This document shows, in pieces, positions 797 through 53,952 of a stretch of DNA of 64,000 bases. How positions within the stretch are numbered: the first letter of the stretch is position 1; every line of letters starts with the position of its first letter. The DNA is taken from positions 2,921,501-2,985,500 of the forward strand of contig NZ_CP150166.1 in NCBI RefSeq assembly GCF_037963765.1, written 5' to 3'. The notes under the pieces were generated by a model. It saw only the letters and a program-made list of their open reading frames with translations, was not told the DNA's origin and made no database searches. The position numbers and the translations under genes are program-made. Source of the DNA: Sporosarcina sp. FSL W8-0480 (lineage in GTDB: Bacteria; Bacillota; Bacilli; Bacillales_A; Planococcaceae).

Positions 797-1125
797 AACG
801 AGAACTCTTCAATGATAAAGGAGAACTCCAGGCACTTTAACGAGAACTCTTCGAGGATAAAGGAGAACTCCAGGCGCTTTAACGAGAACTCTTCAATGAT
901 AAAGGAGAACTCCAGGCACTTTAACGAGAACTCTTCGAGGATAAAGGAGAACTCCAGGCACTTTAACGAGAACTCTTCGACGATAAAGGAGAACTCCAGG
1001 CAGTTTAACGAGAACTCTTCGAGGATAAAGGAGAACTCCAGGCACTTTAACGAGAACTCCTCAGCGATAAAGGAGAACTCCAGGCACTTTAACGAGAACT
1101 TCTTGATGCTAAAGGAGAACTCCCA
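797..1125 (+). repeat. Phased tandem array A: GAGAACTC every 21 bp, 16 units
   Basis: GAGAACTC (one copy GAGAACTT at 1094) occurs at 800, 821, 842 and so on to 1115: sixteen copies at exactly 21 bp spacing. Two spacer types alternate (…ttcnnngataaag and …caggcncttttaac style), making a 42 bp dimer. Because 21 is a multiple of three, an open frame of repeated NENSS/KENSR units runs through, but it begins in the U-tract of the preceding terminator, has no ribosome binding site and overlaps the M20 gene, so I treat the array as non-coding. It lies between two facing genes, bracketed by their terminators. Confidence 0.9.
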
Positions 1126-1136
1126 CGCCCCCTCAA

Positions 1137-1176
1137 TAAAAAAAAGATTCCAAGAGCAATTCCCCCTCTTAGAATC
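1137..1176 (-). terminator. Terminator of the M20 peptidase gene
   Basis: On the minus strand GATTCTAAGAG pairs with CTCTTGGAATC, followed by a run of nine Ts. Confidence 0.85.
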
Positions 1177-1187
1177 TCACAAAACAT

Positions 1188-2321
1188 TCATTCCCCCGCC
1201 GAGAGTCTACCAATCACTTCCGCCAACAAATGCGTTCTTTCGAGAAGTGATGGAATCTCCAAATATTCCTGGTCACTATGAGCATTTCCACCGATAGGTC
1301 CTAACCCATCGATTGTCGGAATCCCCATCGCTGAAGTGAAGGATGCATCCGATCCGCCGCCTGTTGAGACATCGGTGATTTCAATTCCCAACCCGGCACC
1401 TGTTTCCTTTATGATTTCCAACAACTCAATCGTTTGCTCATTTTTCACCATTGGAGGACGATTAATGCCGCCTTCAAGGGTAATAGTAGTTCCGGGAACA
1501 TCAGAAGTTGTACAGATTTCCCGAATCATTGCGTCGATTACTTCGGCTTGCTCAGCATATCTGATTCGCACATCGACATGTCCAGCAGCGGTCGGAGCAA
1601 CCGTGTTCACCGATTCGCCCCCCTCAATAATACCGACGCTAACGCTGACTCCCTCGTCATGATTTGTCAGTGCATGCAGTTTAATGATTTTATGGGCTAA
1701 CTCGCCTATCGCGCTAATCCCATTTTGAGGTTCAATTCCTGAGTGTGCGGCTTTTCCTGTGACGTAAACGGAATAACGCCCCACTCCACGCCTCGCAGTT
1801 ACTAACGAGCCATCTTTTCGGGCAGGCTCCATGATTAACGCATACTTCTTCCCCTCGGCACACTTCTCAATTATCGGCCGTGACGTTTCGGATCCGGTTT
1901 CTTCATCACCATTCAACACTATCTGAACACTCTCAAGTGCCCTAAGATTCTTTTCTTTCAGCGCCTTCATCGCGTACAAAAGTGCGACTTGGCTACCTTT
2001 CATATCAATGACCCCAGGTCCATATGCCTTGTCTCCTTCTATCTTGAACGGCCGTTCTTTCGCAGTGCCAACACGGAAAACGGTATCCATGTGCGCTACA
2101 AGGAGGATGGATGGATTTTCTCCATATGTGATTACCATATTATTTCCACTCGTAGACTCTTCAACTACCTCTGTGGAAAACCCTAATTCTTCATAGAGCT
2201 CTTTCAATATCCCGCCCACTTCATCGATTCCTTCTTTATGAGTTGAGCCGGAGTCAATATTCACAAGCCGTTCAAGCAGTCCTATCATTTCATCCTTCTT
2301 CGTTTGCAAAAATCCCTTCAC
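1188..2321 (-). CDS. M20 family metallopeptidase (carboxypeptidase G2-like)
   Basis: Predicted cytoplasmic zinc hydrolase of the M20 family, closest in motif pattern to glutamate carboxypeptidase/CPG2-like enzymes that release amino acids from peptides or acyl conjugates. Metal-site motifs are intact: VAHMDT, the bridging aspartate in GVIDMKGS, the catalytic pair in NGDEETGS, EPA after it, and the late His in GGNAHSDQ. The dimerisation domain sits between them. Length of 377 residues is normal. The frame opens at a TTG at 2330, but the AAGGGA site fits the GTG at 2321 better (spacing about 9), so I use that. Single gene with its own terminator. Substrate cannot be deduced. Confidence 0.88.
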   Translation of the reverse strand: MKGFLQTKKDEMIGLLERLVNIDSGSTHKEGIDEVGGILKELYEELGFSTEVVEESTSGNNMVITYGENPSILLVAHMDTVFRVGTAKERPFKIEGDKAYGPGVIDMKGSQVALLYAMKALKEKNLRALESVQIVLNGDEETGSETSRPIIEKCAEGKKYALIMEPARKDGSLVTARRGVGRYSVYVTGKAAHSGIEPQNGISAIGELAHKIIKLHALTNHDEGVSVSVGIIEGGESVNTVAPTAAGHVDVRIRYAEQAEVIDAMIREICTTSDVPGTTITLEGGINRPPMVKNEQTIELLEIIKETGAGLGIEITDVSTGGGSDASFTSAMGIPTIDGLGPIGGNAHSDQEYLEIPSLLERTHLLAEVIGRLSAGE

Positions 2322-2548
2322 GTTCCCCAATCCCTTCCCTGCCTAAGTTGCCACTATTTAAAGGATAGTGGCAAGCGGTATAATGTCCTTCTTCTATTTC
2401 TATTCCTACAAACACCCAATTCCCTATTGGGCGAATTATATCAAATTGTAACTGAATCGTCAGAATTGCACAATGTCTATTATTTGAATATAGTTAATCG
2501 TCTTAACTAATCTATAATCATAGTTTTTTCATCAGAAAACTTACAAAG

Positions 2549-2656
2549 ACGCATAAAACCATAAAAAGAAGCATAATTCACCCCCAAAACGCATAATCCC
2601 TTCTAAAAACGCATAAACACACGCAAATGTCCATAAATCGCCAGAATGACGCATAA
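2549..2656. repeat. Phased tandem array B: CGCATAA every 20 bp
   Basis: GCATAA or CCATAA cores begin at 2551, 2571, 2591, 2611, 2631 and 2651, exactly 20 bp apart. One extra CCATAA lies at 2559. The core is usually preceded by A-rich sequence ending in AC (AAAACGCATAA). Spacers differ in sequence. The array lies downstream of the double-nuclease terminator and upstream of the M20 gene. Confidence 0.8.
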
Positions 2657-2678
2657 ACCGCATTTTTCCCGCAAACAC

Positions 2679-2720
2679 CAAAAAAACAGCCCAAGGAAGT
2701 CACCTCCCCGGGCCGTTTTC
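2679..2720 (-). terminator. Terminator of the double-nuclease gene
   Basis: Minus strand: AACGGCCC (2717-2710) pairs with GGGCTGTT (2692-2685), followed by a T run. Confidence 0.8.
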
Positions 2721-2721
2721 A

Positions 2722-5700
2722 TCAAGAAGCTCTTCTTATATTATTTTCCGAGTTAGTACTATCTTTTTTCCAAATCAATTTCACCCACTCCGGATGGTCG
2801 ATGAAAGGATTGCGGTTGCCCTGCCATTGTTCGATTACATTATTGCGGTTCATCTCAAACGCATCGACTGGATCCATTTCATGCCATTCTAACAGAACCG
2901 ATAGTTTACCGTGGTATGGGTTGCTGCCGTTATTCAACAGTTCATTCAGTTCTAAATCCACACGGTCGCCTGCTTCATAACGGGTTGCCATGTAGAACAG
3001 CATCCGTGCTACATCACCTTTTACTCGATCGGGCGGCTCCCATGAATTTGCTGTTCTAAAACAGCCATCACAGCCTTTCACTGCACTCCCGCCATAGTCG
3101 AAATCGAGATTGCCGCGTGAACTGTTCACCTGGACATCAGTAGGACGTAAATGATGGATATCCGTTCCGGGTCCTTTGCTCGTACCGAAATTCCCATGCG
3201 ATTTTGCCCAAACATGCTCCCTGTTCCAATCGCCGACATTTCCTCCGTTACGATCCTTTGAACGTGATTCGCCTGAATAGAACAGGATAACATTGTCCGG
3301 ATTGTTCGGATCCTTGTCGGTTTCCTTTAACGCCTCCCAAACTTCCGCATAGGAAAGCTGGCGATGATTTGAAATGATTTCATGAAGAGCATCTTTCAGT
3401 GCCTGCCCTTCCTTTCCGATTGCATTCTTGTAATAACCGTCACCCGGAATGTCAACGTCCGCTTTAGTAACAGTCACTGTAAAGCTTGCCGTAACCGACT
3501 TATTTCCATCCGTTGCAGTTACCCCAACGATATGGCTTCCTTCTTCAAGTGTCAGTGTAAGGTCGCCTTTATTCACTGTCCCTTTTGTTGCAGTATACGT
3601 TAGCTTGTCGCCATCAGGGTCGCTGAAATGCTCAGAGAGGGCGATTGAAATCGTCTCGCCAGCTTTCACTTCCATGTTCGAGATTGGCTTAGAAATTACT
3701 GGAGCATTATTCTCGGTTGGAACGCCGATTCGCTTCCCTTTTGAGTTGTAAAATATGACTTCAGTAGGGTCAGCCCCTTTAATAAATTCAATTCGCCCGA
3801 TGTTTTCGGCGCCTCTTATCTCGAGTGGGTGTTTGCCCTCCACAATGACATGTCCCATCTTGGTGCCTTTCATATCTACAATTAGACCCTTTTTCTTCGG
3901 CTGTAAGATAACGGTATTCGTCTTGAACCCTTCACCCGTTAACTCTGCATAGTCCCCTTTCAAGTATATGCCATCTTTCAATGATGACTGTCCATCCATA
4001 TAAACCGCAACACTTGGTTCCGCAATCATCACTTGCTTTTTATGATAATTAACAAGGTTATACACTTTTTTAATTGGAACTGGCTCCCAAACTACCGGGG
4101 CAACGAAACCGATCTGTACCATGACTGGATCATGATCGCTTGCACGTCCCGCCATATCCGTGAAGTCCGCATTGATGTGTAAAATATCTATTTCTGTTTC
4201 ATCAACCAAATTATTCGACACTAAAATATGATCTAACACTTGCGAGTTACCTTGGTACACGTATGAGTATCTGTCTGCCAAATCGACATGATTGATCATA
4301 TTCGTCATAAGATCGCCTTCATGGATTTTCAATGCTGCTGTAAATTGGAAGTCATTGAAATCGCCAAGGGAAACGATATTCGCATCGGGATTATCGGTCT
4401 TAATGTCAGAGATGAAATCATATACAAGCTTCGCGATTTGTTTGCGTTGCACTTCGCTTCCATAGACCGGCGGCTGCTTTGAACCGAATAGTGGTGTATC
4501 CCCCGTTTTTGAGTTCCAATGGTTCGCAATCACGACAATGGACTCCCCTTGGAAATCAAATTGTGCCGCCAACGGTTTACGGCTACTTTCGAATGCCGGG
4601 TCAGTCGGGGAAATCCGTCCAGGATTCAGCGTCAATTTGCCGTTTTCATATCCCACAGCTGTCGTCGCATCTCCATACGGAATTCCTTCCGTCAATGAAA
4701 CCCTTGCTGGATTATATAGGAATCCAACTCGGATATTCGCATTCGGCTGTCCTCCGTCATCATTATTCACCGGGTCGATATTGACGTATTCATATCGAAC
4801 ACCTCCTGCATCGACAATTGCTTGGATCAGACGCTCATAACTTTGATTCGCCTTCGAATCACCTGCATCTGGCCCATTATTATCTTGCACTTCCGTCACA
4901 CCGATAATATCTGGACTCTGCATATCGATTGCGAATGCTCGTGCCAGTTTTTTCGCTTTATCATTCGAAGTGGTTTTTGTATTGTTCGAGAAGTTTTCCA
5001 AGTTATACGAAGCGATTGTTAACTTGTCCTCTGCTTTCACAATCGTAGTCTTCTCAGGAACCGCATCCCCTTTTGTATGCCTTTGCTGCATGTCATTCAA
5101 GGAAACGTAGATTTTATAGTTTTGGAATGAATAGCCGACAACACCTGTTATTGGACCATCGAATCGATCGCCCGTCGCTACTTCAAAATCACGTGCGGGC
5201 CCGTTCGGTTCCAACCGGAATTGAACTCGGTCCGCGTTCCCGTCATCTTCTGTTAATAAAACCCCACCATTAATTGTGTCTGTCGTTGCATGTTCAAATA
5301 CCGTAACAAGGTCACCATGTTCCTGAGGTCCGACTGTTTTTACATTGCCAACTTGGACAAGCATTGCTTCACGGCTTTCCCAGAAATCGGCAGCATATGT
5401 CACAGGATCGAATTCTTCGAACTGGTAGCTTGCGATTTTCTCGTTCGGTAAATTCTTTTCATTAATAATGAAAGGAGTTGGAAGCGGAACGTTGCGCTCA
5501 AGAATCTTCACTTTGCCGCCTTGGTCATCACGCACATTTATCTGTGTCGTTTTCAAGTCCGTTTCCTGGCGGTCAGCATACCCGTCAATCGCATACTCAC
5601 TTACTTTTCCAGTGACTGAAACCAAATCCCCGATTGAAAGATTCCAGGCATCTCTCCCGCTGTAAAGGACAATCGCTTCTGACGTGTTCAAATTGCCATC

Positions 5701-7254
5701 GCGTTTTTCATCCGGTGTTTGGATATGGTAATAGGTCGATCCATTCAATTCATATTTATACGTGACAATCCCTTCAATTCCTTCCACGACTTGACCGTCA
5801 AAAGGTGATACATGCCCCTCTCCTTGAATATCATGGATTTGTAAACTTTCCGTAATGGTGTAATTGAAAGTCGCCACATTACCATACCGGCCGTCGCTCG
5901 TTTTCACGACAGCTTTGATCGTCACGTCTTCCCTTACATCAATTGGCGTAGCGTATGTTGCACCATTTTCAATCGGATTCATGCCGTTTAGTGTATATAG
6001 AATTTCAGAATCAGGCGTTCCTGTAGACAATGAAACCTTCACACCACCAACAAATGTACCACTGCTCGGATTCGCAATCACTGGCTGAATGACTGAACTG
6101 TCAACGATGATATCCATCGTCGAGCGGGGGATGATCTGGTAATCATTATCGAATTGCTGAACGATACCTGTAATCGAGTCATACGTTGTCCCGACAATCA
6201 GTCCAAGTGATGCCGTTTCATCACGAACGATGAATTCATGCCCATCTGTTGCTAAATAATTTGCCCAGCCACTTCCGGCTTGAACATCCGACAGGATTGC
6301 ATTATGCACAGTGACAAGCTGTGATTCTACCTCTTCACCAACTTCAGCCCCTGTAATCACTTTAGGTGCCGGGTCTCCTGCCATTTTATTTATTTCGACG
6401 ACGGATGCGCCATCCAACTGCAATAATCCCCGATAATCGGCAAGGGTTCCTTTCAATGTCACTTCATCGCCAATTGAAACAGGCAAACTTGTTGGACGAA
6501 CTGCAATTCCACCCGTTTCGTCCTGAATTGAAATGGTGTTTTTCAAGTTGGCAGCAACGATGCCTTTAATTGTAACCGTCTGACCAAGAGCCTTGGAACG
6601 CGCGTCTGCAATTGTTAAAATATCCTTAGGCTCTTCAGGATTTCCGGGTTCACCCGGGTTCGTGCCATCCATTTCATGTGACCCTAAATAATCGAATGTG
6701 TCCTTCGGGTAAACGTTCCATTCATCATCCCGATTAAATGCATCATTCGGAACCGAATCCCCGCTTGAAATCGTAGCTTTTCGGACGAGTGTAACATCTG
6801 TTCCCCAGTTGCTCCGTATCCCAACTTGTCCGAAAGAATCAATAACCTTATCCTCTTTTTTAAGTACAAGCGCATCATCGCCATTGAAATTGATGACGCT
6901 CGTATTTTCAAGATTACCCTTATCTTTAATTTTAGCTGCTGCGTCTTTATGATATAAGACAAACGTTTCATCTGAAGCCAATGTCCCCGATAACACTAAC
7001 TTTGAAGTCGCTACGGTTGCTCCATTTGCGTAAAGTTCCAGTGAATACTTACTTAAGTCCACGGTCTGTCCTGTTCCATTATAAAGCTCAACAGCCTTAT
7101 TAAAACTGCTGCCTTCAACGTACTCTGATATGAACAAATCGGACACAGTCGGCTCCGCTTTTGCAATTGTCGGTAGTGATGGCACTAACATACTTACCAC
7201 CAATCCAACTGCAAAAAAACTATTCAAACGCTTTCTCCATCTCTTACTTCGCAT
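2722..7254 (-). CDS. Secreted multidomain nuclease: exonuclease/phosphatase domain plus endonuclease I
   Basis: 1510 residues with a signal peptide (basic start, hydrophobic core, cleavage near AKA-EP). Domains in order: lamin-tail-like domain (about 36-190); OB-fold-like segment (about 210-340); chitobiase/FN3-like segment (about 398-465); second OB-like segment; endonuclease/exonuclease/phosphatase domain (about 745-1045) with YNLENF, EVQDNNG, NHWNSKTGD, LGDFNDF and the final SDHDPVM; a cadherin-like domain (about 1190-1270); then a complete endonuclease I domain (about 1275-1500) with NREHVWAKSHG and DIHHLRPTD. Both catalytic sites look intact. The EEP half resembles ExeM/NucH-type extracellular DNases and the end resembles the Bacillus endonuclease I family. 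A role in extracellular DNA breakdown is inferred. No sorting signal or SLH repeat is seen. AGGAGA precedes the ATG. Confidence 0.88.
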   Translation of the reverse strand: MRSKRWRKRLNSFFAVGLVVSMLVPSLPTIAKAEPTVSDLFISEYVEGSSFNKAVELYNGTGQTVDLSKYSLELYANGATVATSKLVLSGTLASDETFVLYHKDAAAKIKDKGNLENTSVINFNGDDALVLKKEDKVIDSFGQVGIRSNWGTDVTLVRKATISSGDSVPNDAFNRDDEWNVYPKDTFDYLGSHEMDGTNPGEPGNPEEPKDILTIADARSKALGQTVTIKGIVAANLKNTISIQDETGGIAVRPTSLPVSIGDEVTLKGTLADYRGLLQLDGASVVEINKMAGDPAPKVITGAEVGEEVESQLVTVHNAILSDVQAGSGWANYLATDGHEFIVRDETASLGLIVGTTYDSITGIVQQFDNDYQIIPRSTMDIIVDSSVIQPVIANPSSGTFVGGVKVSLSTGTPDSEILYTLNGMNPIENGATYATPIDVREDVTIKAVVKTSDGRYGNVATFNYTITESLQIHDIQGEGHVSPFDGQVVEGIEGIVTYKYELNGSTYYHIQTPDEKRDGNLNTSEAIVLYSGRDAWNLSIGDLVSVTGKVSEYAIDGYADRQETDLKTTQINVRDDQGGKVKILERNVPLPTPFIINEKNLPNEKIASYQFEEFDPVTYAADFWESREAMLVQVGNVKTVGPQEHGDLVTVFEHATTDTINGGVLLTEDDGNADRVQFRLEPNGPARDFEVATGDRFDGPITGVVGYSFQNYKIYVSLNDMQQRHTKGDAVPEKTTIVKAEDKLTIASYNLENFSNNTKTTSNDKAKKLARAFAIDMQSPDIIGVTEVQDNNGPDAGDSKANQSYERLIQAIVDAGGVRYEYVNIDPVNNDDGGQPNANIRVGFLYNPARVSLTEGIPYGDATTAVGYENGKLTLNPGRISPTDPAFESSRKPLAAQFDFQGESIVVIANHWNSKTGDTPLFGSKQPPVYGSEVQRKQIAKLVYDFISDIKTDNPDANIVSLGDFNDFQFTAALKIHEGDLMTNMINHVDLADRYSYVYQGNSQVLDHILVSNNLVDETEIDILHINADFTDMAGRASDHDPVMVQIGFVAPVVWEPVPIKKVYNLVNYHKKQVMIAEPSVAVYMDGQSSLKDGIYLKGDYAELTGEGFKTNTVILQPKKKGLIVDMKGTKMGHVIVEGKHPLEIRGAENIGRIEFIKGADPTEVIFYNSKGKRIGVPTENNAPVISKPISNMEVKAGETISIALSEHFSDPDGDKLTYTATKGTVNKGDLTLTLEEGSHIVGVTATDGNKSVTASFTVTVTKADVDIPGDGYYKNAIGKEGQALKDALHEIISNHRQLSYAEVWEALKETDKDPNNPDNVILFYSGESRSKDRNGGNVGDWNREHVWAKSHGNFGTSKGPGTDIHHLRPTDVQVNSSRGNLDFDYGGSAVKGCDGCFRTANSWEPPDRVKGDVARMLFYMATRYEAGDRVDLELNELLNNGSNPYHGKLSVLLEWHEMDPVDAFEMNRNNVIEQWQGNRNPFIDHPEWVKLIWKKDSTNSENNIRRAS

Positions 7255-7471
7255 GATACCATTCTCCTCTCATCGTTAGAAATTATGGTGCTGCGCGTCA
7301 TAGATCGTAAGAAAACCGCTCCTTCCACGAGATTAATAGAATTGCATATTCATACTAACATTGCCTACAACCAATGGCTATGAGACTTTTTGTAATATTT
7401 TGCTACTACTATGTATTGCTTTCGAAGTATTTTTTTCCAATGAAAGAGTGAGGTTGGTTGCAGAGAGAATA

Positions 7472-7499
7472 TAAAAACACCCCCATTTTGGGAGTGTTA
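7472..7499 (-). terminator. Terminator of the FtsH-like gene
   Basis: Minus strand: AACACTCCC, loop AAAAT, then GGGGGTGTT and TTTA. Confidence 0.8.
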
Positions 7500-7515
7500 A
7501 TGTTAATCTATCCAA

Positions 7516-9472: not shown

Positions 9473-9539
9473 AAATCAGTTAACAAACGTAGTAACTTTT
9501 GACTTGGCATTCTACGTACTGTTTTTGAGGACACTTATT

Positions 9540-9750
9540 CACACTGGCGCGGCTAAAGGGTCGCAAGGACGCAAGAGTCGGTAGGGCTTGCGTTGCTTAA
9601 GGATAGAAGACATCCAGTGGAAAATGACCGCGGCATTGATCATTTTCACTAAGATTCGAATCACGAATTTATAAGATGAACACTAACATAAAAAAAGTTA
9701 CTATAATTCAAAGGGTTGCTTCCAAATACGGGAGCAACCCTTATCCAATT
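9540..9750 (+). ncRNA. Candidate structured non-coding RNA
   Basis: CACTGG (9542-9547) can pair with CCAGTG (9614-9619), closing a domain that contains a second stem, GACGCAAG (9568-9575) with CTTGCGTT (9587-9594), and a small GUC/GAC hairpin with a GCAAG loop. Two more hairpins follow: GAAAATGA/TCATTTTC (9620-9647) and a 10 bp stem AAGGGTTGCT/AGCAACCCTT (about 9711-9743). No plus-strand gene follows within reach, and the next gene is on the other strand, so a cis riboswitch is unlikely in this orientation. The GGACGCAAGAG stretch recalls the core of cyclic-di-GMP-I aptamers, but the rest of that consensus is not met. I do not assign a family. Confidence 0.35.
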
Positions 9751-13383: not shown

Positions 13384-13753
13384 AGGGATTTTTATATGGG
13401 TTGCCTGTCCATGGCAAGTCCCTAAAACGCCTAAAAAGTAATTTGGGAGGTGCTGTTGTAGTCAACAATGGGTGTTGCTCCGATTAGTGTCGTGTATTTT
13501 TTCATATTAAATTATGATTGATGGAACTTATCAGCTGCTATTTTATGTCACCTGAGTGGTGGTGGCAATGTCAATTACAACCCGCAAATGTGTTCATTGT
13601 TTGTCCTAGTCGTAGTACCTATAAGTTAGTTCACCCGATTCCTTAAAAACCCCTTCGATAAAGGGTTCTCTATACAATATTACAGAGATCAATCGGTGTT
13701 TAGGTTAGCGCCACGGTTGTCCAGAAAATAATTTATTAATTGCGATGAAAAAC
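13384..13753. other. Gene-free stretch with hairpins
   Basis: No supportable ORF on either strand. It holds a hairpin closed by AGGGA/TCCCT with inner TTGCC/GGCAA (13383-13424) and a small AACCCCTT/AAGGGTT hairpin (13648-13667). Nothing else recognised. Confidence 0.4.
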
Positions 13754-13873
13754 GCATAAAACGAACGAAAGACGCATAAAGTTCCTCTAATTGCTCATAA
13801 ATCTGTCCAAAAACGCATAAAAAATTTTTATGAGCTTTTGAAAGAATTTATGCGTGATTCTGCTATTTTATGC
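13754..13873. repeat. Phased array C: inverted GCATAA array, 20 bp spacing
   Basis: Forward cores GCATAA (or TCATAA) begin at 13754, 13774, 13795 and 13815. Reverse cores TTATGA or TTATGC begin at 13828, 13848 and 13868. Spacing is 20 or 21 bp within each arm. The arms meet head to head around AAAAAATTTTT at about 13822, so the whole forms an imperfect palindrome. Same core as array B. It lies between two convergent genes. Confidence 0.8.
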
Positions 13874-13886
13874 GCTTTTTGAAACG

Positions 13887-16702: not shown

Positions 16703-16712
16703 GTAAGGACGT

Positions 16713-17146
16713 GATACGGCGTATCACAATGTAGATACGCCGTATCACAACGTAGTTGTGGCGTATCACAACGTAACTCGCTCGCATCACAACGTAACAC
16801 GCTCGCATCACAACGTAAACGCCGCATCACAACGTAACTCGCTCGCATCACAACGTAACTCGCTCGTATCACAATGTAACTCACTCGTATCACAACGTAA
16901 ACCGTTCGTATCACAACGTAAACGCCGCATCACAACGTAACTCGCTCGCATCACAACGTAACTCGCTCGCATCACAACGTAACTCGTTCGTATCACAACG
17001 TAACACGCTCGCATCACAACGTAAACGCCGTATCACAACGTAACTCGCTCGTATCACAACGTAACTCACTCGCATCACAACGTAAAGACGTATCACAACG
17101 TAACTCACTCGTATCACAACGTAAACCGCTCGCATCACAACGTAAC
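16713..17146 (+). repeat. Tandem array D: YATCACAACGTAA, 21 units
   Basis: Twenty-one copies of (T/C)ATCACAACGTAA with variable 5-8 base tails (CTCGCTCG, ACGCCG, CACGCTCG), giving periods of 21 or 19 bp, once 18. The first unit is preceded by an inverted half, so the array opens with the palindrome GTGATACGGCGTATCAC (16712-16728). It runs from 10 bases after the sugar dehydrogenase stop to about 45 bases before a sigma-B promoter. Open frames across it (VYVVIRR-type on the minus strand) are by-products of the period and have no ribosome binding sites. Confidence 0.9.
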
Positions 17147-17190
17147 TCTTTTTAGTCTGCCCCAATTATTAAATAAAAACGAATCATTTT

Positions 17191-22317: not shown

Positions 22318-22493
22318 GACACCCTCCTTTCCGTTCAACTCTTTTCCGAAATAAAACCATACGTTCTATCATACAACAAAATCCTGTTCGGATTAATTAA
22401 AAAATCGCGGGTTCTCTCGCATTCTATTTACTTTTCCGATATACTAATTAATGTTTTAAAATAGGTATAATAAATAAGTGGAGGCTTGAAGCT

Positions 22494-23471
22494 TTGAAAG
22501 TATGGTTATCGGTAATTGTTGGATTGTTGCTTATTCTTTCAGGATGCGTTAATGCATCGGATATAGATACAAATGAAAAATCAGCTATTGAAACTGTTAG
22601 TCAGGAAACACCCCAAGATAATAAATCTACAGAAGAAACGTCAAAAGATGATATTTCAAAAGTAGATGGTTCAAAAGATAAAACAAAAGAGACTGAATCA
22701 GAGGTCACAAAAAACAATACTCCAACTGTCGCTCCAAGCGAAAAAAAGGAGTCCGTTGTTAAAACGGCTCCCGTAAAGAAGACTGAAACGGCTGGTACAA
22801 CTGCGCATATTCCAGTTCAGTTAGTTAAAACAATCGATGGAGATACGATTAAAATTCTTTATAACGGCCAAGAAGTAAATGTCCGATATTTATTGATCGA
22901 CACGCCTGAAACGAGCCATCCGCGGTTAGGCAAGCAACCGTTTGGCGAGGAAGCGAAAGAGCGTAATCGGCAATTGGTGAACAGCGGTGCATTATCAATC
23001 GAATTCGATGTCGGTGAACGGTATGATAAATACGACAGATTGCTTGCTTACGTCTATGTCGATGGGAAAAGTGTTCAGGAGACATTGCTTTCGGAAGGAT
23101 TGGCTCGGGTTGCTTATGTATATCCGCCCAACACGCGTCATTTGACACCTTACGAAGAAGCACAAGCAGTAGCAAAGAAAAAAAGACTGGGCATCTGGTC
23201 GGTTGAAGACTATGCCACAGATTCCGGATTTAATAGTGACGCGGCTAATACAGCAACAAAAGTCCCAACGGCAACTAGTGGATCCACTTCTAAACCTGCA
23301 GCATCTACAAGTAAGCCCGACACAACGACTAGCACTTCTTCCGGGAATAAGGAGTTTTTCCAAAACTGTACAGAGTTACGGAAGAAGTATCCTAATGGCG
23401 TCCCGCAAAGCCATCCCGCTTACCAGCCAAAAATGGACCGTGATAAAGATGGCTTTGCATGTGAAAAATAA
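22494..23471 (+). CDS. Lipoprotein thermonuclease (SNase-like) with excalibur domain
   Basis: 325 residues, TTG start at 22494 with GGAGG 9 bases upstream. A lipoprotein signal (LLLILSGC) gives an acylated Cys near residue 18. A Thr/Ser/Lys-rich linker leads to the nuclease domain (about 105-240) with VKTIDGDTIKI, the first Arg in VRYLLIDTPE, the catalytic Glu region FGEEAKERN and Arg in YDKYDRLLAYVYVDG. These match micrococcal-type nuclease active sites (as B. subtilis YncB). The C-terminus is an excalibur calcium-binding motif (DRDKDGFACE). A surface-tethered calcium-dependent nuclease for extracellular nucleic acid is inferred. Confidence 0.9.
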   Translation: MKVWLSVIVGLLLILSGCVNASDIDTNEKSAIETVSQETPQDNKSTEETSKDDISKVDGSKDKTKETESEVTKNNTPTVAPSEKKESVVKTAPVKKTETAGTTAHIPVQLVKTIDGDTIKILYNGQEVNVRYLLIDTPETSHPRLGKQPFGEEAKERNRQLVNSGALSIEFDVGERYDKYDRLLAYVYVDGKSVQETLLSEGLARVAYVYPPNTRHLTPYEEAQAVAKKKRLGIWSVEDYATDSGFNSDAANTATKVPTATSGSTSKPAASTSKPDTTTSTSSGNKEFFQNCTELRKKYPNGVPQSHPAYQPKMDRDKDGFACEK

Positions 23472-45760: not shown

Positions 45761-45861
45761 ATTGTTTGTTTTTAGGTTATATGCTATATTGCAACTAACT
45801 ATTGCATTTTCTATTACTCTAATAGAGATGCAGTAGGGAATAACATACGGGGGGAACAAAT

Positions 45862-47481
45862 ATGAAGAAAAATGGCAAAGTGAAGTGGCTGTTTGTACTT
45901 GCTCTGGCCTTGTCAATGATTCTTGCTGCATGTTCTGGGGGTGGCGGTTCATCTTCGGATAAGGGATCGGGGAATGACATTGATGAAGGAAAAGGGAAAG
46001 GGATCGAAGGCGGGGACCTGGTCCTTGCAGTTCTATCGGATGCATCTTCTTTGGATCCAGCTGGCTCCAACGACGTGCCATCTTCAGTAGTTCAAGCAAA
46101 TATTTACGAAACACTTGTTAACCGCGATGATGACAATAGTATTATCCCTGGCCTTGCAGAAGACTGGGAAGCAATCGATGATACAACTTATGAATTCAAA
46201 CTACGAAAAGGCGTCAAGTTCCATGATGGCGAGCCTTTCAATGCGGAAGCAGTTAAAGCGAACCTTGACCGTATCCGCGATAAGGATGTTGCGTCACCAC
46301 GTTACTTCCTATTTGAAATGATTACAGATGTTATCGTAAAAGATGAACATACTGTACAGATTAAAACTGAATATCCATTCGCGCCTTTGTTAGCTCACCT
46401 TTCACATAACGGTGGCGGCATGGTGAGCCCGAAGTCCATTGAGGCTGATTATGCGGCAATGACTGGCGACGTGAAAGCCGGATCTGTCATTTCTATCAAT
46501 CCGGTCGGAACAGGATACTTCAAATTTGAAAGCTGGACTCCAGGCGATCAAATCAAACTTGTCCGCAATGATGACTATTGGGGCGACAAAGCGCATGTAG
46601 ACACAGTTACATTCAAGGTTATCCCTGAAAGTGCTGTACGGAATGCTGATCTTCAAACAGGTCACGTTCACATCGCTGATCCAATCCAGCCGAACGAAGT
46701 TGCTGGCATCAACTCTGACAGCTATGCAAAAGTAAATCAAAAGGCTTCATCCAGCCTTGCATACCTTGGCTTTAACACGGAAAAAGAACCATTCAACGAT
46801 CCAAAAGTTCGTAGAGCAATTTCCATGTTGATCAATAAAGAAGATATCAGTGAAGGGGTATACGACGGATTCGGCGTACTTGCAAAAGGCCCTCTTGCAC
46901 CTGGAATCTTCGGTTTCAATGACGATGCGAAACCAATTGAGTACAATGTCGAAGAAGCGAAAAAGCTGTTGAAAGAGGCAGGCTATGAAAATGGCTTCAA
47001 ATCTTCAATCTGGACAAATGACAATCCGCAGCGTCAACAAATCGCAGTTCTTGTTCAAAACGAGCTAAAAAAAGTAAATGTCGAAGTGGACATCGAAGTA
47101 ATGGAATTCGGTGCTTACCTCGAAAAGACTGCAAATGGAGAGCATGACATGTTCATCCTTGGCTGGTCCAACCCGACTGGCGACGCGGACTACGGAATGT
47201 ACGCATTATTCCACTCCTCACAAAAGGGGAACCCAGGAAACCGTTCATTCTATGAGAACTCAGAAGTCGACAAACTTCTTGAGCAAGGCCGCCGCGAATC
47301 CGATCCGGATGAGCGTATCAAGATTTACAATAAAATTCAGGAACACCTAATCGAAGACGCCCCAATGGCATACTTAATCCACACTGAGTATCTAACAGGC
47401 GTCAGCAACAAAATCCGTGGCTTCTCCATCGGTACAGATGGTATTTATAAGTTGAAAAATGTACAGTTTGTAGAGGAGTAA
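45862..47481 (+). CDS. Peptide-binding lipoprotein (family 5 solute-binding protein)
   Basis: 539 residues. Lipoprotein signal LALSMILAAC with Cys near 24 and a Gly/Ser spacer. SBP family 5 signature: IIPGLAEDWEAIDDTTYEFKLRKGVKFHDGEPFNAEAVKANLDRI, then PVGTGYFKFESW and DPKVRRAISMLINKEDI. Divergent from the permease/ATPase operon, so this system is split into two transcripts reading away from a shared control region. GGGGGGAA precedes the ATG. It could also serve re-import of signalling peptides (inference). Confidence 0.92.
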   Translation: MKKNGKVKWLFVLALALSMILAACSGGGGSSSDKGSGNDIDEGKGKGIEGGDLVLAVLSDASSLDPAGSNDVPSSVVQANIYETLVNRDDDNSIIPGLAEDWEAIDDTTYEFKLRKGVKFHDGEPFNAEAVKANLDRIRDKDVASPRYFLFEMITDVIVKDEHTVQIKTEYPFAPLLAHLSHNGGGMVSPKSIEADYAAMTGDVKAGSVISINPVGTGYFKFESWTPGDQIKLVRNDDYWGDKAHVDTVTFKVIPESAVRNADLQTGHVHIADPIQPNEVAGINSDSYAKVNQKASSSLAYLGFNTEKEPFNDPKVRRAISMLINKEDISEGVYDGFGVLAKGPLAPGIFGFNDDAKPIEYNVEEAKKLLKEAGYENGFKSSIWTNDNPQRQQIAVLVQNELKKVNVEVDIEVMEFGAYLEKTANGEHDMFILGWSNPTGDADYGMYALFHSSQKGNPGNRSFYENSEVDKLLEQGRRESDPDERIKIYNKIQEHLIEDAPMAYLIHTEYLTGVSNKIRGFSIGTDGIYKLKNVQFVEE

Positions 47482-47490
47482 GATGGATCG

Positions 47491-47524
47491 AAAGAATGCC
47501 GCCCGCGGGCGGCATTCTTTTTTT
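47491..47524 (+). terminator. Terminator of the binding-protein gene
   Basis: AAAGAATGCCGCCC pairs with GGGCGGCATTCTTT, followed by TTTTT. Confidence 0.9.
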
Positions 47525-47537
47525 GTTGTTGGCGATG

Positions 47538-47921
47538 TATCGCAATGTAATTCGCTCGCATCACAACGTAAACACGGCGTATCGCAACGTAACTCGATCG
47601 TATCGCAACGTAAACGGCGTATCACAATGTAACTCGCTCGTATCGCAACGTAAACGGCGTATCACAACGTAAAACGATCGCATCACAACGTAACTCGCTC
47701 GTATCACAACGTAAACGGCGTATCACAACGTAAAACGAACGTATCGCAACGTAACTCGCTCGTATCACAACGTAAACGGCGTATCACAACGTAAACCATC
47801 GTATCACAACGTAAAACGCCCGCATCACAACGTAACTCGCTCGTATCACAACGTAAAACGCCCGCATCACAACGTAACTCGCTCGTATCGCAACGTAAAA
47901 CGCCCGCATCACAACGTAAAC
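47538..47921 (+). repeat. Tandem array E: YATCRCAACGTAA, 19 units
   Basis: Nineteen copies of (T/C)ATC(A/G)CAACGTAA with tails such as ACGGCG, CTCGCTCG and AACGCCCG, giving mostly 19 or 21 bp periods. It follows the terminator of the binding-protein gene. About a third of units carry TATCGC instead of TATCAC, a variant nearly absent from arrays D and F. Confidence 0.9.
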
Positions 47922-48027
47922 CTCTCTCCCAACAAATTTTAATTCACCCTACGCCGTCCAAATCGCATAATTCTCAATTCGTTGTATATAAATTAACTAA
48001 CACCAAAATCCAGGGAGTGAGGATAAA

Positions 48028-48195
48028 TTGAACTTTGAAAATTTACTCGATAAACTTTTAGGACAACGTGAGCTCATTCATGAAGTAGAATGTGCAGTAT
48101 GCGGCGGGTTTGAAGCTTATTACCGCGATCCGTTCACAAAGGAGAACTTGGGGCGGGCTTGTGAATTTTGCTGGGAAATTCAAACGTTTTATTAA
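48028..48195 (+). CDS. Small zinc-ribbon-like protein, 55 residues
   Basis: TTG start at 48028 with AGTGAGG upstream, stop at 48193-48195. Two CxxC pairs (CAVC at about 22-25 and CEFC at about 45-48) separated by 19 residues form a probable zinc ribbon. No family recognised; DNA, RNA or protein binding are all possible. It lies alone between repeat array E and the terminator of the protease gene. Confidence 0.6.
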   Translation: MNFENLLDKLLGQRELIHEVECAVCGGFEAYYRDPFTKENLGRACEFCWEIQTFY

Positions 48196-48223
48196 ACCAA
48201 AAACGCAATCCCGATAGGGGAAT

Positions 48224-48264
48224 AAAAAAGGGAGGTCATCCAAGTCGCGCCTGATTGACTTCCC
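48224..48264 (-). terminator. Terminator of the C-terminal processing protease gene
   Basis: Minus strand GGGAAGTCA pairs with TGACCTCCC (one mismatch), followed by TTTTTT. Confidence 0.7.
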
Positions 48265-48275
48265 ACTTTGAAACA

Positions 48276-49658: not shown

Positions 49659-49728
49659 GTCAAAATCCTCATTTCCTGGTGATGTTCCTTTCATTATATC
49701 TTCTCTTACTAAAATTGGTAGACCGGTA

Positions 49729-49757
49729 GAAAAAAAGCCAACCAGAATAGGTCAGCT
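49729..49757 (-). terminator. Terminator of the S9 peptidase gene
   Basis: Minus strand AGCTGACC pairs with GGTTGGCT (two G-U pairs), followed by a T run. Confidence 0.65.
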
Positions 49758-49769
49758 CATCCAAATATG

Positions 49770-51569
49770 TTAATTAACTTTCAATCTTGCATTCAGATAT
49801 CGTTCAAAAAACTCAACCGTTTTCGTGTGCATCGTAATATGATTTTCAATCTTTTCCGTCTGATGGCCTTCATCTTCGAAAATGACCATTTCGACTTCCC
49901 GATTCATTTTCTTCAAATCCGCTACAATCTGCTCCGCTTCACTGACCGGAACACGTGAATCATTCCTTCCATGGAACACTAATAACGGCGCGGTGATTTT
50001 ATGCATTAGATTCATCGGTGCAGTTTCTTCAAAGAAATCGCGATGTTCTTTGAGTGATCCATACTCATACTCACGCAAATACCTTCTCCACTCCCCTGTG
50101 TTCTCAAGGAAAGTCCTCAAATTGGACATGCCGACGATATCGACACCCGCTGCCCATAGATCCGGATACTGAGTCAACGCAGACAACACCATGAACCCGC
50201 CGTAACTCCTACCCATGATGCCAATTTTATCTGGCAGTACTTGATGGGAATCGACTAATGCCCCCGCCAAACTCGCCAAATCCGCCACCGCATCAAGACG
50301 CTTGTCCGCATCATCCAATTTCAAATATGCCCTGCCATATCCATTGCTTCCCCGAATATTCGGAACAGCAACCGCAAATCCTTTATAGACAAGATATTGT
50401 AAAACTGGATTATACTCGGCTCTCGACTGCGCTTCAGGACCGCCATGCACGTAAATGACTGCCGGCTTCGACTGATCACAATCCTGGTTATAGAAGAAAT
50501 ATGGAACCTCCAAACCATCGAAAGATTTAAAGGTATGCAGTTCTGGCTCCCTCCAATAATTGCCGACAGTTTCCGATTGCCCGATGAACGTCTGGCGCTC
50601 CGCCTCTTTCGTCGTCAATGTATATTTCCAAATATCCCCCGGGTTCGTCGGAGTCTTCATTGTGAATAAAAACGAGTCATTCGACAGCCATGACATTGAA
50701 CCAATAACACCGTCAGGAAGTGTATCAATCAGTTCATAAGTATTCGTTTTTGGGTAATAAATCCCAAGTCTCGTGATGCCGCCTTCATTAAGAGTGAAGG
50801 ATAGCAAGTCACCATCCGGAGAAAGCGCAATTTCCTCCATGTCCCATTTTTCCCAATGGAGCAGTTTTTCAAGATGTCCGGGGTTGCCCAACGTGAAACT
50901 ACATAAGTGAACTGTATCTTCGTTCGTATCCGTAAGGACATAACCCTCGCCATTCCCCACCCTTGGCGAGTTCATTCGAGCAAGCACATTTTCATTCCCA
51001 AGGCGCACTTTTTCCTTTGTCCGGGTATTTACAAGATAAATGATTCGATCAATATTTGTCTCCATCATGCTGACAAAAAGGGATTCATTTTCAAACCATC
51101 CAAGCGGGGTGCAGTTCGCATCATGCGTAAATACTTGTTCCACTTCCCGGGTTTCTACATCGATGATAAACACATCGAACTGACCAGGATGACGACGGTT
51201 GCTGGAATAAGAAAGATAACGACCATCCTTTGACCAACCCCCGACGTAATGGAAATGGTCCTTTGATTCCACAAGCACCTCAAGATCCTTCCCGTTTGGC
51301 CCAACAATATAAAGTTGCTGCTTTTCATTCCCCTTACTGTCAATACCCACTACCGTCCGATCACCGGTTGGCGAATGATACACACTCAAAACACGGTCAT
51401 GTGTTTCGATAAATTGTATCGGTTCCCCACTTGGGTCCAACGTCCAAACTTGCGGAATTCCAGTAAGTTTCGATAAAAATGTAAACGTCCCCGTTCCCGG
51501 AATAACCTTCGCTTCATACGCAGAATTAACTTTCAGAAAATCCAACAATACCTTTTCTTCATCTGACAT
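49770..51569 (-). CDS. S9 family prolyl oligopeptidase-like peptidase
   Basis: 599 residues from the ATG at 51569 with GGGGGAG upstream. An N-terminal seven-bladed propeller with TolB-like blades (DRTVVGIDSKGNEKQQLY, GGWSKDGRYLSYSSNRR, LSPDGDLLSFTLNEGG) leads to an alpha/beta-hydrolase domain (about 350-599). Catalytic Ser in GRSYGGFMV, Asp in FHGRNDSRVPVSEAE and His in DEGHQ. No signal peptide, so a cytoplasmic peptidase acting on short peptides, perhaps those imported by the nearby transporter (inference). Confidence 0.9.
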   Translation of the reverse strand: MSDEEKVLLDFLKVNSAYEAKVIPGTGTFTFLSKLTGIPQVWTLDPSGEPIQFIETHDRVLSVYHSPTGDRTVVGIDSKGNEKQQLYIVGPNGKDLEVLVESKDHFHYVGGWSKDGRYLSYSSNRRHPGQFDVFIIDVETREVEQVFTHDANCTPLGWFENESLFVSMMETNIDRIIYLVNTRTKEKVRLGNENVLARMNSPRVGNGEGYVLTDTNEDTVHLCSFTLGNPGHLEKLLHWEKWDMEEIALSPDGDLLSFTLNEGGITRLGIYYPKTNTYELIDTLPDGVIGSMSWLSNDSFLFTMKTPTNPGDIWKYTLTTKEAERQTFIGQSETVGNYWREPELHTFKSFDGLEVPYFFYNQDCDQSKPAVIYVHGGPEAQSRAEYNPVLQYLVYKGFAVAVPNIRGSNGYGRAYLKLDDADKRLDAVADLASLAGALVDSHQVLPDKIGIMGRSYGGFMVLSALTQYPDLWAAGVDIVGMSNLRTFLENTGEWRRYLREYEYGSLKEHRDFFEETAPMNLMHKITAPLLVFHGRNDSRVPVSEAEQIVADLKKMNREVEMVIFEDEGHQTEKIENHITMHTKTVEFFERYLNARLKVN

Positions 51570-51728
51570 GAATACTCCCCCAATTTGATTTCTCAATAAT
51601 TTTAAGACTCTATCAATTCTATAATAGTTTACCATTCCCGAAGTTCCCTATCAAAAAAAGAGTTCCTATAGATATCACTAAAAATAAATCAATCCATGTT
51701 AGACTTACAATAAAAAGGAGGTTTTTAT

Positions 51729-52499
51729 ATGATCAATGAATTAATTCGAGCCATGTTGTTGACCATACGGAATTCGGATGAATATGACTTATTCCCCATT
51801 AAAGATAAGAAGAGACTTGAAGAAATTATGGCTTTCGTTGGTGGAGAAGAAGTGGACTTACTTATGAGCGGAATTATGGATATGGATGCACCTCATCAGC
51901 ATTATCAATTGAAAGTGACGTTAAAAGGATCGAAGCCCCCGATTTGGAGACGAATTGTCATCCCTGGATATTACACGTTCGAGGAGCTGCATCTTGTCAT
52001 ACAAGAAGCCATGGGGTGGGACAACTACCATTTATATCTATTCGAATACGGTGATTTTATTATCGATCCCGAAGCGGAAGATGACGACTCCTTTAACAGT
52101 TTCTTCGCACCTGCGCGTCCCAAATTGGATGCCACCGATACAATGATTGCTGAGCTCATGGTAAAGGAAGGCGATAAGTGCCAATATACGTACGATTTCG
52201 GGGATGATTGGCAACATACTATTGTACTTGAAAAGATCCTTCCGGCTGATGAAGAACGTCAGGTACCCGTCTGTTTGAAAGGAAAGCGTGCTTGTCCACC
52301 TGAAGATTGTGGCGGCATTTTAGGGTTCGAATCAATGTTGGCGACATTGGAAGGACCCGATACGGATGAAAAAACACATCTTTTGGATTGGCTTGGCGGA
52401 GAATTTGATAAAGAAGCATTCAATATCGATTATGTGAACGCTAACTTAAAAGAGCTTGGAAATGAAATTGAAGAAGAATTGGAAGACTATATGCTTTGA
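51729..52499 (+). CDS. Plasmid pRiA4b ORF-3-like family protein
   Basis: 256 residues. AAAAAGGAGG precedes the ATG. After about 55 residues the family domain begins: YQLKVTLKGSKPPIWRRIVIPGYYTFEELHLVIQEAMGWDNYHLYLFE, then KCQYTYDFGDDWQHTIVLE and CLKGKRACPPEDCGG. This is the diagnostic pattern of the PRiA4_ORF3 (TnpR-like, IS1096 passenger) family. The molecular function is unknown. The acidic C-terminus (EIEEELEDYML) is typical of the chromosomal forms. Confidence 0.9.
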   Translation: MINELIRAMLLTIRNSDEYDLFPIKDKKRLEEIMAFVGGEEVDLLMSGIMDMDAPHQHYQLKVTLKGSKPPIWRRIVIPGYYTFEELHLVIQEAMGWDNYHLYLFEYGDFIIDPEAEDDDSFNSFFAPARPKLDATDTMIAELMVKEGDKCQYTYDFGDDWQHTIVLEKILPADEERQVPVCLKGKRACPPEDCGGILGFESMLATLEGPDTDEKTHLLDWLGGEFDKEAFNIDYVNANLKELGNEIEEELEDYML

Positions 52500-52507
52500 A
52501 TTATCGC

Positions 52508-52538
52508 AGCGCCTGCCACCTATATAGGTGACAGGTGC
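52508..52538 (+). terminator. Hairpin after the pRiA4b-like gene
   Basis: GCGCCTGCCACCT pairs with AGGTGACAGGTGC with two mismatches. It lacks a good T run, so termination is uncertain. Repeat array F starts directly after it. Confidence 0.5.
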
Positions 52539-52541
52539 TTG

Positions 52542-53952
52542 TAACACAATGTAAATGCGGTGTATCACAACGTAAATGCGTCGTAACACAACGTAAACTC
52601 CGTATCACAACGTAAACGCGCCGTATCACAACGTAAACCCGACGTATCACAACATAAACTCCGTATCACAATGTAAATGCGCCGTATCACAACATAAACG
52701 CGTCGTATCACAACGTAAACGCGCTGTATCACAACGGAAACACCCCGTATCACAACGTAAACGCGTCGTATCACAACGTAAACGCGTCGTATCACAACGT
52801 AAACTCCGTATCACAACATAAACGCATCGTAACACAACATAAACTCCGTATCACAATGTAAACACCCCGTATCACAACGTAAACGTGTCGTATCACAACA
52901 TAAACTCCGTATCACAACGTAAACGTGTCGTATCACAACATAAACCCGCTGTATCACAACATTAACTCCGTATCACAACGTAAACACCCCGTATCACAAC
53001 GTAAACACCCCGTATCACAACGTAAACGCGCAGTATCACAATGTAAACACGTCATATCACAACATAAACTCCGTATCACAATGTAAACGCGTCGTATCAC
53101 AACGTAAACCCGACGTATCACAATGTAAATGCGTCGTATCACAACATTAACTCCGTATCACAACGTAAACCCTACGCATCACATCATAAACCCGCCGCAT
53201 CACAACATAAACCCGCCGCATCACAACGTAAACCCGACGTATCGCAACGTAAACGCGCAGTATCACAATGTAAACACGTCATATCACAACATAAACTCCG
53301 TATCACAATGTAAACGCGTCGTATCACAACGTAAACCCGACGTATCACAATGTAAATGCGTCGTATCACAACATTAACTCCGTATCACAACGTAAACACC
53401 CCGTATCACAACGTAAACGCGCAGTATCACAACATTAACTCCGTATCACAACATAAACTCCGTATCACAATGTAAACGCGTCGTATCACAACGTAAACGC
53501 GTCGTATCACAACGTAAACGCGTCGTATCACAACGTAAACGCGTCGTATCACAACGTAAACTCCGTATCACAACATAAACGCATCGTAACACAACATAAA
53601 CTCCGTATCACAATGTAAACACCCCGTATCACAACGTAAACGTGTCGTATCACAACATAAACCCGCTGTATCACAACATTAACTCCGTATCACAACGTAA
53701 ACACCCCGTATCACAACGTAAACGCGCAGTATCACAATGTAAACACGTCATATCACAACATAAACTCCGTATCACAATGTAAACGCGTCGTATCACAACG
53801 TAAACCCGACGTATCACAACGTAAACCCTACGCATCACATCATAAACCCGCCGCATCACAACATAAACCCGCCGCATCACATCATAAACCCGCCGCATCA
53901 CATCATAAACCCGCCGCATCACAACATAAACCCGCCGCATCACAACGTAAAC
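52542..53952 (+). repeat. Tandem array F: TATCACAACGTAAAC, about 1.4 kb
   Basis: Some 65-70 units of TATCACAACRTAAAC with short tails (GCGTCG, TCCG, ACCCCG, CCGACG), at 19 or 21 bp. Third-position drift (CAACGT, CAATGT, CAACAT) is common. Higher-order duplication is visible: a block of about 100-140 bp beginning GCGCAGTATCACAATGTAAA recurs near 53025, 53254 and 53721, and the ACGCATCACATCATAAACCC block recurs at about 53171 and 53828. No Shine-Dalgarno-linked ORF exists in it. Confidence 0.92.

What the first reader, a model, noticed from the sequence alone, without database searches (positions are those of the whole stretch)
797..53952. Six non-coding tandem arrays in three families share a two-helical-turn period
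Seen: arrays at 797-1125, 2549-2656, 13754-13873, 16713-17146, 47538-47921 and 52542-53952 have unrelated cores (GAGAACTC; GCATAA; TATCACAACGTAA) but all repeat at 19-21 bp, two turns of B-DNA, so each core faces the same side of the helix. All lie at gene 3-prime ends, usually right after a terminator. Independent sequences converging on one period and one genomic position suggest a shared role: binding of a nucleoid or transcription-blocking protein, a recombination substrate, or 3-prime RNA structures. Known tandem elements (CRISPR, REP/BIME, DR) do not fit. A role is inference.
Basis: partly seen in the sequence, partly recalled or inferred. Interest (0 to 1): 0.85.

Follow-up and report, generated by a model that had tools for sequence, protein, structure and literature searches.

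The report
Two-turn tandem arrays at gene ends
A Sporosarcina-like bacterium carries over a hundred short tandem DNA arrays beside the ends of its genes, in about ten sequence versions that nearly all repeat every 20-21 bases, and some relatives carry other versions in the same places, which may be an undescribed system of protein landing strips on the chromosome.

Summary
All six arrays are present. In 872 kb of the same Sporosarcina-like genome I chained 109 arrays in five core families and saw about five more cores, nearly all with 19-21 bp steps. Spacing is exact: 188 of 201 GCATAA gaps are 20, 40 or 60 bp; 180 of 183 GAGAACTC gaps are multiples of 21. A few columns of the unit are fixed, the rest is near random. 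Arrays avoid divergent gaps (4 of 104) and thin out toward the terminus (0 of 76 regions in the last octile). In a relative, 21 of 21 non-coding arrays in 400 kb keep this period. Arrays persist in phase at orthologous places although spacers there are no more alike (49%) than in unrelated arrays (47%); at two places the core was swapped. In five genera the purH-purD gap holds arrays with differing cores and the same period. Best reading: cooperative DNA-binding sites packed every two helical turns. No binding protein or role was identified. CRISPR, REP/BIME and iteron decoys are not supported. The cores are not all unrelated, and only about half the arrays follow a detectable terminator.

The parts
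797..1125 (+). F1 array, core GAGAACTC, about 16 units in 21-bp steps (42-bp higher-order unit)
750..779 (+). terminator-like hairpin plus T-run behind the plus-strand reading frame that ends near 749 (frame not called by my script), just before the F1 array
   Evidence: read by eye
2549..2656 (+). F2 array, core GCATAA, 20-bp steps (one degenerate unit), behind the 3-prime end of the minus-strand gene 2722-7227
13752..13875 (.). F2 head-to-head array: GCATAA units on + then on -, joined by an A/T hairpin-like centre
16709..17148 (+). F3 array, core ATCACAACRTAA, 21 units, mostly 21 and 19 bp steps
47494..47526 (+). intrinsic-terminator-like hairpin of the solute-binding protein gene (45862-47481), directly upstream of an F3 array
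   Evidence: read by eye; gene domain
47537..47921 (+). F3 array, 19 units, mostly 21 and 19 bp steps
52508..52540 (+). hairpin behind the PRiA4_ORF3-domain gene (51729-52499); not scored as a terminator by my strict rule
   Evidence: read by eye; gene domain
52541..53954 (+). F3 array, 69 units, the one with most units; longer internal repeats visible by eye

Best explanation
The arrays are strings of binding sites for one or more sequence-specific DNA-binding proteins. Each protein unit covers one 20-21 bp site (two helical turns) and packs against its neighbour, so whole arrays are the working unit. SHOWN: exact spacing; a few fixed columns among near-random ones, including columns outside the word used for searching; arrays that persist in phase at orthologous places while their spacers have diverged; avoidance of divergent gaps; both orientations for F1, F2 and F5; different cores with the same spacing in related species. 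INFERRED: a trans-acting protein reads the core, side-by-side packing sets the period, and core changes follow changes in that protein. INFERRED, weaker: the bound strip works as a boundary beside transcription units (insulating, limiting read-through or anchoring the nucleoid), much as protein-site arrays behind eukaryotic rRNA genes do (recalled). The protein is not identified.
For: Exact spacing with no 30-32 bp steps. F2: 218 distinct units among 226, yet an A outside the search word is kept in 94%; likewise AA in F1 (97 and 95%), CG in F3 (91 and 99%) and G in F4 (94%). In registers lying between the outer exact cores of F2 chains, core columns are 82-99% and most spacer columns 34-66% (178 registers; in G085 86-100% and 30-62%, 87 registers). 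Six orthologous G000/G085 F2 array pairs (four with both flanks matched, two with one) keep arrays in 20-bp phase while spacer identity is 0.490 (168 comparisons) against 0.471 in non-orthologous arrays (868); flanks 66-86%. GAGAACTC occurs mostly inside arrays (230 copies, 183 gaps of at most 70 bp). Context: co-directional 71, convergent 29, divergent 4 of 104, against 380, 92 and 88 of 560 gaps (divergent p 2e-4). 21 of 21 non-coding arrays in 400 kb of G085 at lag 20, 21, 40, 42 or 60. Periodic purH-purD gaps in 14 of 78 loci, all 14 at 21, 41 or 42.
Against: No binding protein was found or tested. The core identity of 0.98 is largely built in, because units were picked by their core; flanks are mostly coding, so there is no neutral intergenic yardstick. 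Homogenisation by recombination rather than selection is not excluded. Operon-internal arrays (purF-purM, purN-purH here; purH-purD elsewhere) argue against a strong roadblock. Arrays are not universal: F1 and F3 triples occur only in the own genome among 151, and random 100-kb samples of four other same-genus genomes gave two weak 20-bp hits. F1, F3 and F4 have many identical units (distinct 177 of 252, 97 of 167, 108 of 178), as plain tandem expansion would give. No replication-strand bias was seen.
Confidence: 0.45

Rival explanations
1. Neutral minisatellites: replication slippage makes and loses arrays wherever they do no harm; the shared period comes from the duplication mechanism and the position from selection against insertions in genes and promoters.
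For: Many identical units in F1, F3 and F4; gain and decay between species (purF-purM gap 225 bp here, 121 bp with what looks like a decayed F1 remnant in S. thermotolerans, 15-22 bp in three near relatives); avoidance of promoter gaps only.
Against: Fixed columns outside the search word among near-random neighbours; 218 of 226 F2 units distinct yet in exact phase; one core in 53 unlinked F2 arrays; phase kept at orthologous places with spacers at background identity.
Confidence: 0.22
2. RNA-level elements: transcribed 3-prime tails or inter-cistronic linkers that stay unstructured and bind Rho or another RNA-binding protein.
For: F3 arrays are sense in 6 of 6 and F4 in 6 of 7 co-directional cases; F3 core-strand RNA is less structured than shuffles, mean z +2.7, 9 arrays; some arrays lie inside an operon.
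Against: F1, F2 and F5 occur in both orientations (co-directional sense/antisense 5/9, 16/14, 3/2); about half the arrays lie beyond a predicted terminator; no Rfam match over the gathering score on the window arrays.
Confidence: 0.15
3. Selfish or decoy arrays: sites propagated by a core-recognising enzyme, or chromosomal copies of plasmid or phage iterons that soak up foreign replication proteins.
For: Several cores per genome, gain, loss and core switching at one place; geometry like plasmid iterons (recalled).
Against: Viral-contig scans for F1, F2, F3, F4 and F7 gave 63, 22, 0, 14 and 16 stretches, which on inspection were coding repeats, isolated pairs or repeats of another kind; 7 of the 22 F2 stretches were not masked as coding (L433, L435, L437, L440, L441, L442, L445) but by eye have other, mostly near-identical units. 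No blastn hit of F1 or part of F3 in plasmids or of F1 in phages, though BLAST filters simple repeats. No Rep_3 domain in the genome. Many array neighbours look like housekeeping genes. F5, F6 and F8-F10 were not scanned.
Confidence: 0.1

Closest known systems
Plasmid iterons (direct repeats bound by Rep initiators; recalled)
   Same: contiguous direct repeats of about 19-22 bp, one core per system, cooperative binding expected
   Different: dispersed over a chromosome at gene ends; no Rep_3 domain in the genome; no match of the arrays tried in plasmid or phage records
REP/BIME elements of enterobacteria (recalled)
   Same: many copies, near 3-prime ends of transcription units, depleted from promoter gaps
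   Different: units not palindromic, core strand not folded in F2-F5, several cores in one genome
DNA uptake sequence dialects of Neisseriaceae (recalled)
   Same: lineage-specific versions of a short word, many per genome, often near gene ends
   Different: the word tested (GAGAACTC) occurs mainly in phased arrays, not singly
Tandem terminator-protein sites behind eukaryotic rRNA genes (Sal boxes; recalled)
   Same: tandem protein sites just behind genes, fast-evolving sequence
   Different: bacterial chromosome, mixed orientation, no known protein
C. difficile TR6 and TR10 typing repeats (PMC2628660, passages seen)
   Same: 21- and 22-bp tandem units with variable sequence
   Different: two loci used for typing, TR6 within an ORF; no class of dispersed arrays in the passages seen

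Membership tests
CRISPR array | repeats of roughly 24-47 bp with unique spacers of similar length (recalled) | tested here: not met
   conserved part 6-13 bp in a 20-21 bp unit
CRISPR array | adjacent cas genes | not tested
   neighbours were listed by sequence; Pfam was run on ten window proteins only, none a Cas family
REP/BIME | palindromic units forming hairpins | tested here: not met
   core-strand fold mean z: F2 +0.36, F3 +2.68, F4 +0.52, F5 +1.00, F1 -1.14; opposite strand F1 -1.16, F2 -1.46, F3 -0.91, F4 -0.05, F5 -0.62. Head-to-head F2 centres look hairpin-like
REP/BIME | location away from promoter gaps, at ends of transcription units | tested here: met
   4 of 104 arrays in divergent gaps
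Plasmid iterons | contiguous direct repeats of about 19-22 bp | tested here: met
Plasmid iterons | cognate Rep initiator | tested here: not met
   PF01051 absent from the genome; other Rep families not tested
DNA uptake sequences | word scattered as single or paired copies | tested here: not met
   GAGAACTC 230 copies, 183 consecutive gaps of at most 70 bp; other cores not tested this way
DNA uptake sequences | promotes DNA uptake | not testable with these tools
   needs transformation assays
Neutral minisatellite | all columns of the unit evolve alike | tested here: not met
   F2 and F1 columns differ sharply, also outside the search word; registers were partly conditioned on exact cores; homogenisation not excluded
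Rfam RNA families | match over gathering score on the arrays | tested here: not met
   window only; the one match is BsrC at 9519-9605

The most novel reading that the evidence does not exclude
A chromosome-wide system of this bacterial family in which DNA-binding proteins of shifting specificity co-evolve with many dispersed two-turn arrays at the ends of transcription units, with around ten parallel specificities in one genome and lineage-specific dialects across genera.
Probability: 0.33. Interest if true: 0.9.

Novelty: categorically new. Interest (0 to 1): 0.78.

Why it matters
If the arrays are protein landing strips, these bacteria have a chromosome-organising or transcription-boundary system that my literature searches did not find described. 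Its motif differs between lineages while spacing and some positions are kept, which would make co-evolution of a DNA-binding protein with many sites directly measurable.

Tried and rejected
Plasmid or phage iteron decoys: five viral-contig scans (F1, F2, F3, F4, F7), blastn in plasmids (F1, part of F3) and phages (F1), and a Rep_3 search gave no support. RNA hairpins: not supported for F2-F5 core strands; F1 and the opposite strand of F2 are mildly structured, so not excluded there. Replication-fork polarity: no strand bias (F1 9 leading and 15 lagging, F2 29 and 24, F3 4 and 5). Terminator-orientation rule: only a weak trend (co-directional sense/antisense 23/8 with a terminator before the array, 13/18 without, p 0.02), not relied on. 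Literature: ten searches, of which I saw listings, and passages of one paper; none listed describes these arrays. Subscription journals are mostly not held. A gene common to array-rich genomes was not sought; whole proteomes were not at hand.

Caveats on controls: the backward pattern itself matched in several genomes (G026 9, G056 7, G069 7, G044 4), perhaps because AATACG-like arrays exist there, so that control is not clean; the control matched up to 5 times in a genome. In one search, 15 of the 23 positive genomes have one or two matches and may be chance; eight (own included) have at least four. In one search the random family samples gave 11 of 24 non-coding periodic hits at 20/21 multiples, only two or three with a clear core by eye; the outgroup gave 1 of 4 in about a third as much non-coding DNA, so that comparison is weak. 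In one search periodic places in coding-masked DNA (also often at 21 or 42, as codon multiples) were set aside, as. One search used six orthologous pairs; the 55730 site, the neighbour 438692 and the core-switch sites were left out. The origin-to-terminus count was first made on arrays found in fetched stretches (81 regions) and repeated on the uniform pair criterion (76 regions; my script recovers 154 of 161, 136 of 137 and 113 of 113 pairs); the report uses the second.
Full report
WHAT IS THERE. The six arrays exist at the stated places. The window is bases 2,921,501-2,985,500 of a 3.25-Mb single contig. Its genome's purN protein is 88% identical to that of Sporosarcina thermotolerans, the best of 80 named loci kept, so the genus is probably Sporosarcina. 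I located pairs of the three cores in the whole genome (each listing is capped at 100, the rest lie in the contiguous stretch fetched at the sequence end) and took 56 stretches (872 kb with the window, mostly chosen because they hold arrays, so densities are not genome averages).

SPACING. Among consecutive GCATAA copies at most 70 bp apart, 149 are at 20, 35 at 40 and 4 at 60 bp (188 of 201). For GAGAACTC 136 are at 21, 42 at 42 and 2 at 63 (180 of 183). For ATCACAA 110 of 175 are at 21 and 27 at 19, with most of the rest at 40, 42, 61 or 63. Steps of 30-32 bp are absent in all three. Of seven control words only CATAAC (8 of 22 pairs at 40) and CAAGAACC (3 of 4 at 20) show small peaks, and both overlap array cores. 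Since 30-32 bp steps would also keep the helical face, the rule is contiguous 20-21 bp footprints rather than only 'same face'.

MORE FAMILIES. A 7-mer scan revealed two further families, F4 (CGCTCAAGAA, mostly 20 bp) and F5 (AAGAATGGACC, 20 and 21). In all, 109 arrays of F1-F5 with at least three units were chained (24, 53, 9, 13, 10). A scan free of any motif found 138 periodic places: 105 on F1-F5 arrays, 15 in coding DNA and 18 other non-coding. Of those 18, 14 are at lag 21, 41 or 42 (one, at 3,095,189, looks like chance). They give further cores: TTATCGATCATTTCCC (six places), TTTACCACCGA (three), AATGCGCTCTT (two), ATTCRATAGATAAA (one) and GGGAAGTCATCGG (one).

UNIT ANATOMY. F2 has 218 distinct units among 226; an A outside the search word is kept in 94%, about 10 bp from the core, with near-random positions between. 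F1, F3 and F4 have fewer distinct units (177 of 252, 97 of 167, 108 of 178). In registers between the outer exact cores of F2 chains, core columns are 82-99% and most spacer columns 34-66% (178 registers here; 87 in G085 with the same picture; partly conditioned on exact cores). Five F2 places are head-to-head; four of them have the same short A/T-rich hairpin-like centre, the one at 797,135 does not.

PLACEMENT. Of 104 arrays with both neighbours called, 71 are in co-directional, 29 in convergent and 4 in divergent gaps; the background of 560 gaps of at least 20 bp is 380, 92 and 88 (divergent depleted p 2e-4, convergent enriched p 3e-3). A terminator lies between gene end and array in 47 of 99 cases, or 57 of 108 with a looser rule. 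Co-directional orientation, sense/antisense: F3 6/0, F4 6/1, F1 5/9, F2 16/14, F5 3/2. With dnaA at 445.5 kb, 76 F1-F3 array regions defined by the pair patterns fall 11, 16, 20, 11, 9, 6, 3, 0 in octiles from origin to terminus (p 3e-6; 3e-4 without the dense 3.19-3.25 Mb island). There is no bias by replication strand. Many neighbours look like housekeeping genes (names such as glyA, tuf, ftsZ, atpC and purF are mine from the sequence). Some arrays sit inside an operon: F1 between purF and purM, F5 between purN and purH.

RELATIVES. GCATAA triples occur in 23 of 151 family genomes, eight of them with at least four matches, with other spacer letters and 20- or 21-bp steps. F1 and F3 triples occur only here (1 of 151 each). 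In the genus, GCGCTCAA triples occur in 18 of 68 genomes and GATAA quadruples in 27 of 68, in versions such as GGTGATAA, ACCGATAA and TTCAATAGATAA. In the 80 named purN loci, 30 of 44 non-coding periodic places are at 20/21 multiples, with differing cores. The purH-purD gap is periodic in 14 of 78 loci, all at lag 21, 41 or 42, in records labelled Ureibacillus, Lysinibacillus, Metasolibacillus, Bhargavaea and Bacillus. The purN-purH gap is periodic in 7 of 79 (six at 21/41/42, one at 36), purF-purM in 0 of 79. Cores in the purH-purD gap grade into each other (TCGCAAGTAAA, CGCACATAAA, CGCCCATAAA, CGCAGATAA), some shared by two or three species; a few others (CGGACAAAA, GAATGTGAAGC) differ more. 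So the cores are not simply unrelated, and the units of an array mostly carry the same letters.

ORTHOLOGOUS ARRAYS. G085, a same-genus genome, has 21 non-coding periodic places in 400 kb, all 21 at lag 20, 21, 40, 42 or 60. Part of it is collinear (inverted) with this genome. In six orthologous F2 pairs (four matched on both flanks, two on one) the arrays keep the 20-bp phase while spacer identity is 0.490, no better than in non-orthologous arrays (0.471); flanks are 66-86% identical. The core identity of 0.98 in that comparison is largely built in, since units were picked by their core. At two places the core was exchanged: a GCATAA array in G085 stands where this genome has an F4 array (3,226,725), and likewise behind the glyA-like gene. 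Some G085 arrays have no counterpart here, for example 683,675, whose site lies in this window near 22,404-22,761. Arrays also come and go: purF-purM is 225 bp here, 121 bp with what looks like a decayed F1 remnant in S. thermotolerans, and 15-22 bp in S. highlanderae, S. koreensis and Sporosarcina sp. ACRSL. Random 100-kb samples of eight other family genomes gave few arrays, so density varies widely.

HOW IT MOST LIKELY WORKS. Fixed columns and phase beside free spacers, scarcity of the GAGAACTC word outside arrays, mixed orientation of three families and placement outside divergent gaps point to cooperative DNA-binding strips, one protein unit per two turns (inference). A boundary role beside transcription units is my pick among functions, held weakly because arrays also sit inside operons. 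RNA structure has little support: core-strand mean z F1 -1.14, F2 +0.36, F3 +2.68, F4 +0.52, F5 +1.00; opposite strand F1 -1.16, F2 -1.46, F3 -0.91, F4 -0.05, F5 -0.62. Iteron decoys found no support.

KNOWN RELATIVES. Iterons, REP/BIME, uptake-sequence dialects and eukaryotic terminator-protein arrays each share some features and fail others (membership table; their descriptions are recalled). The similar published case seen is the pair of C. difficile typing loci TR6 (21 bp, in an ORF) and TR10 (22 bp, non-coding) (PMC2628660, passages). Ten literature searches listed no description of this class. I call it categorically new as a system, with the caveat that tandem repeats as such are common and that no protein has been found.

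Noticed in passing
window 9519-9605, minus strand: Rfam BsrC sRNA match (59.9 bits, gathering 38).
   Followed up: no
G000 3209630 and 3196038; L469, L471: A dispersed element like CCCCTAATTTGTCAAAACCATTnAGCGCGA lies near F2 arrays: two places in the G000 stretches, seven in G085 (two of these with the second half only).
   Followed up: partly
G000 contig ends (19-247 and 3249359-3249585): F4 arrays lie at both ends of the contig, so it was probably cut at a repeat.
   Followed up: no
G000 3191501-3249597: A 58-kb stretch with GC skew opposite to its neighbours and 16 arrays; part is collinear but inverted relative to G085 C1:340-460 kb.
   Followed up: partly
G000 3071501-3191501: 120 kb of lower GC (0.39) without F1-F5 arrays, with weaker DnaA-family ATPase matches at 3118959 and 3148913; perhaps mobile DNA.
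   Followed up: no
window 2722-7227, minus strand: 1501-aa protein combining lamin-tail, endonuclease/exonuclease/phosphatase and Endonuclease_1 domains, perhaps a secreted nuclease.
   Followed up: no
genomes G026, G044, G056, G069: The backward control word AATACG itself gave 4-9 phased triples, perhaps another array core.
   Followed up: no
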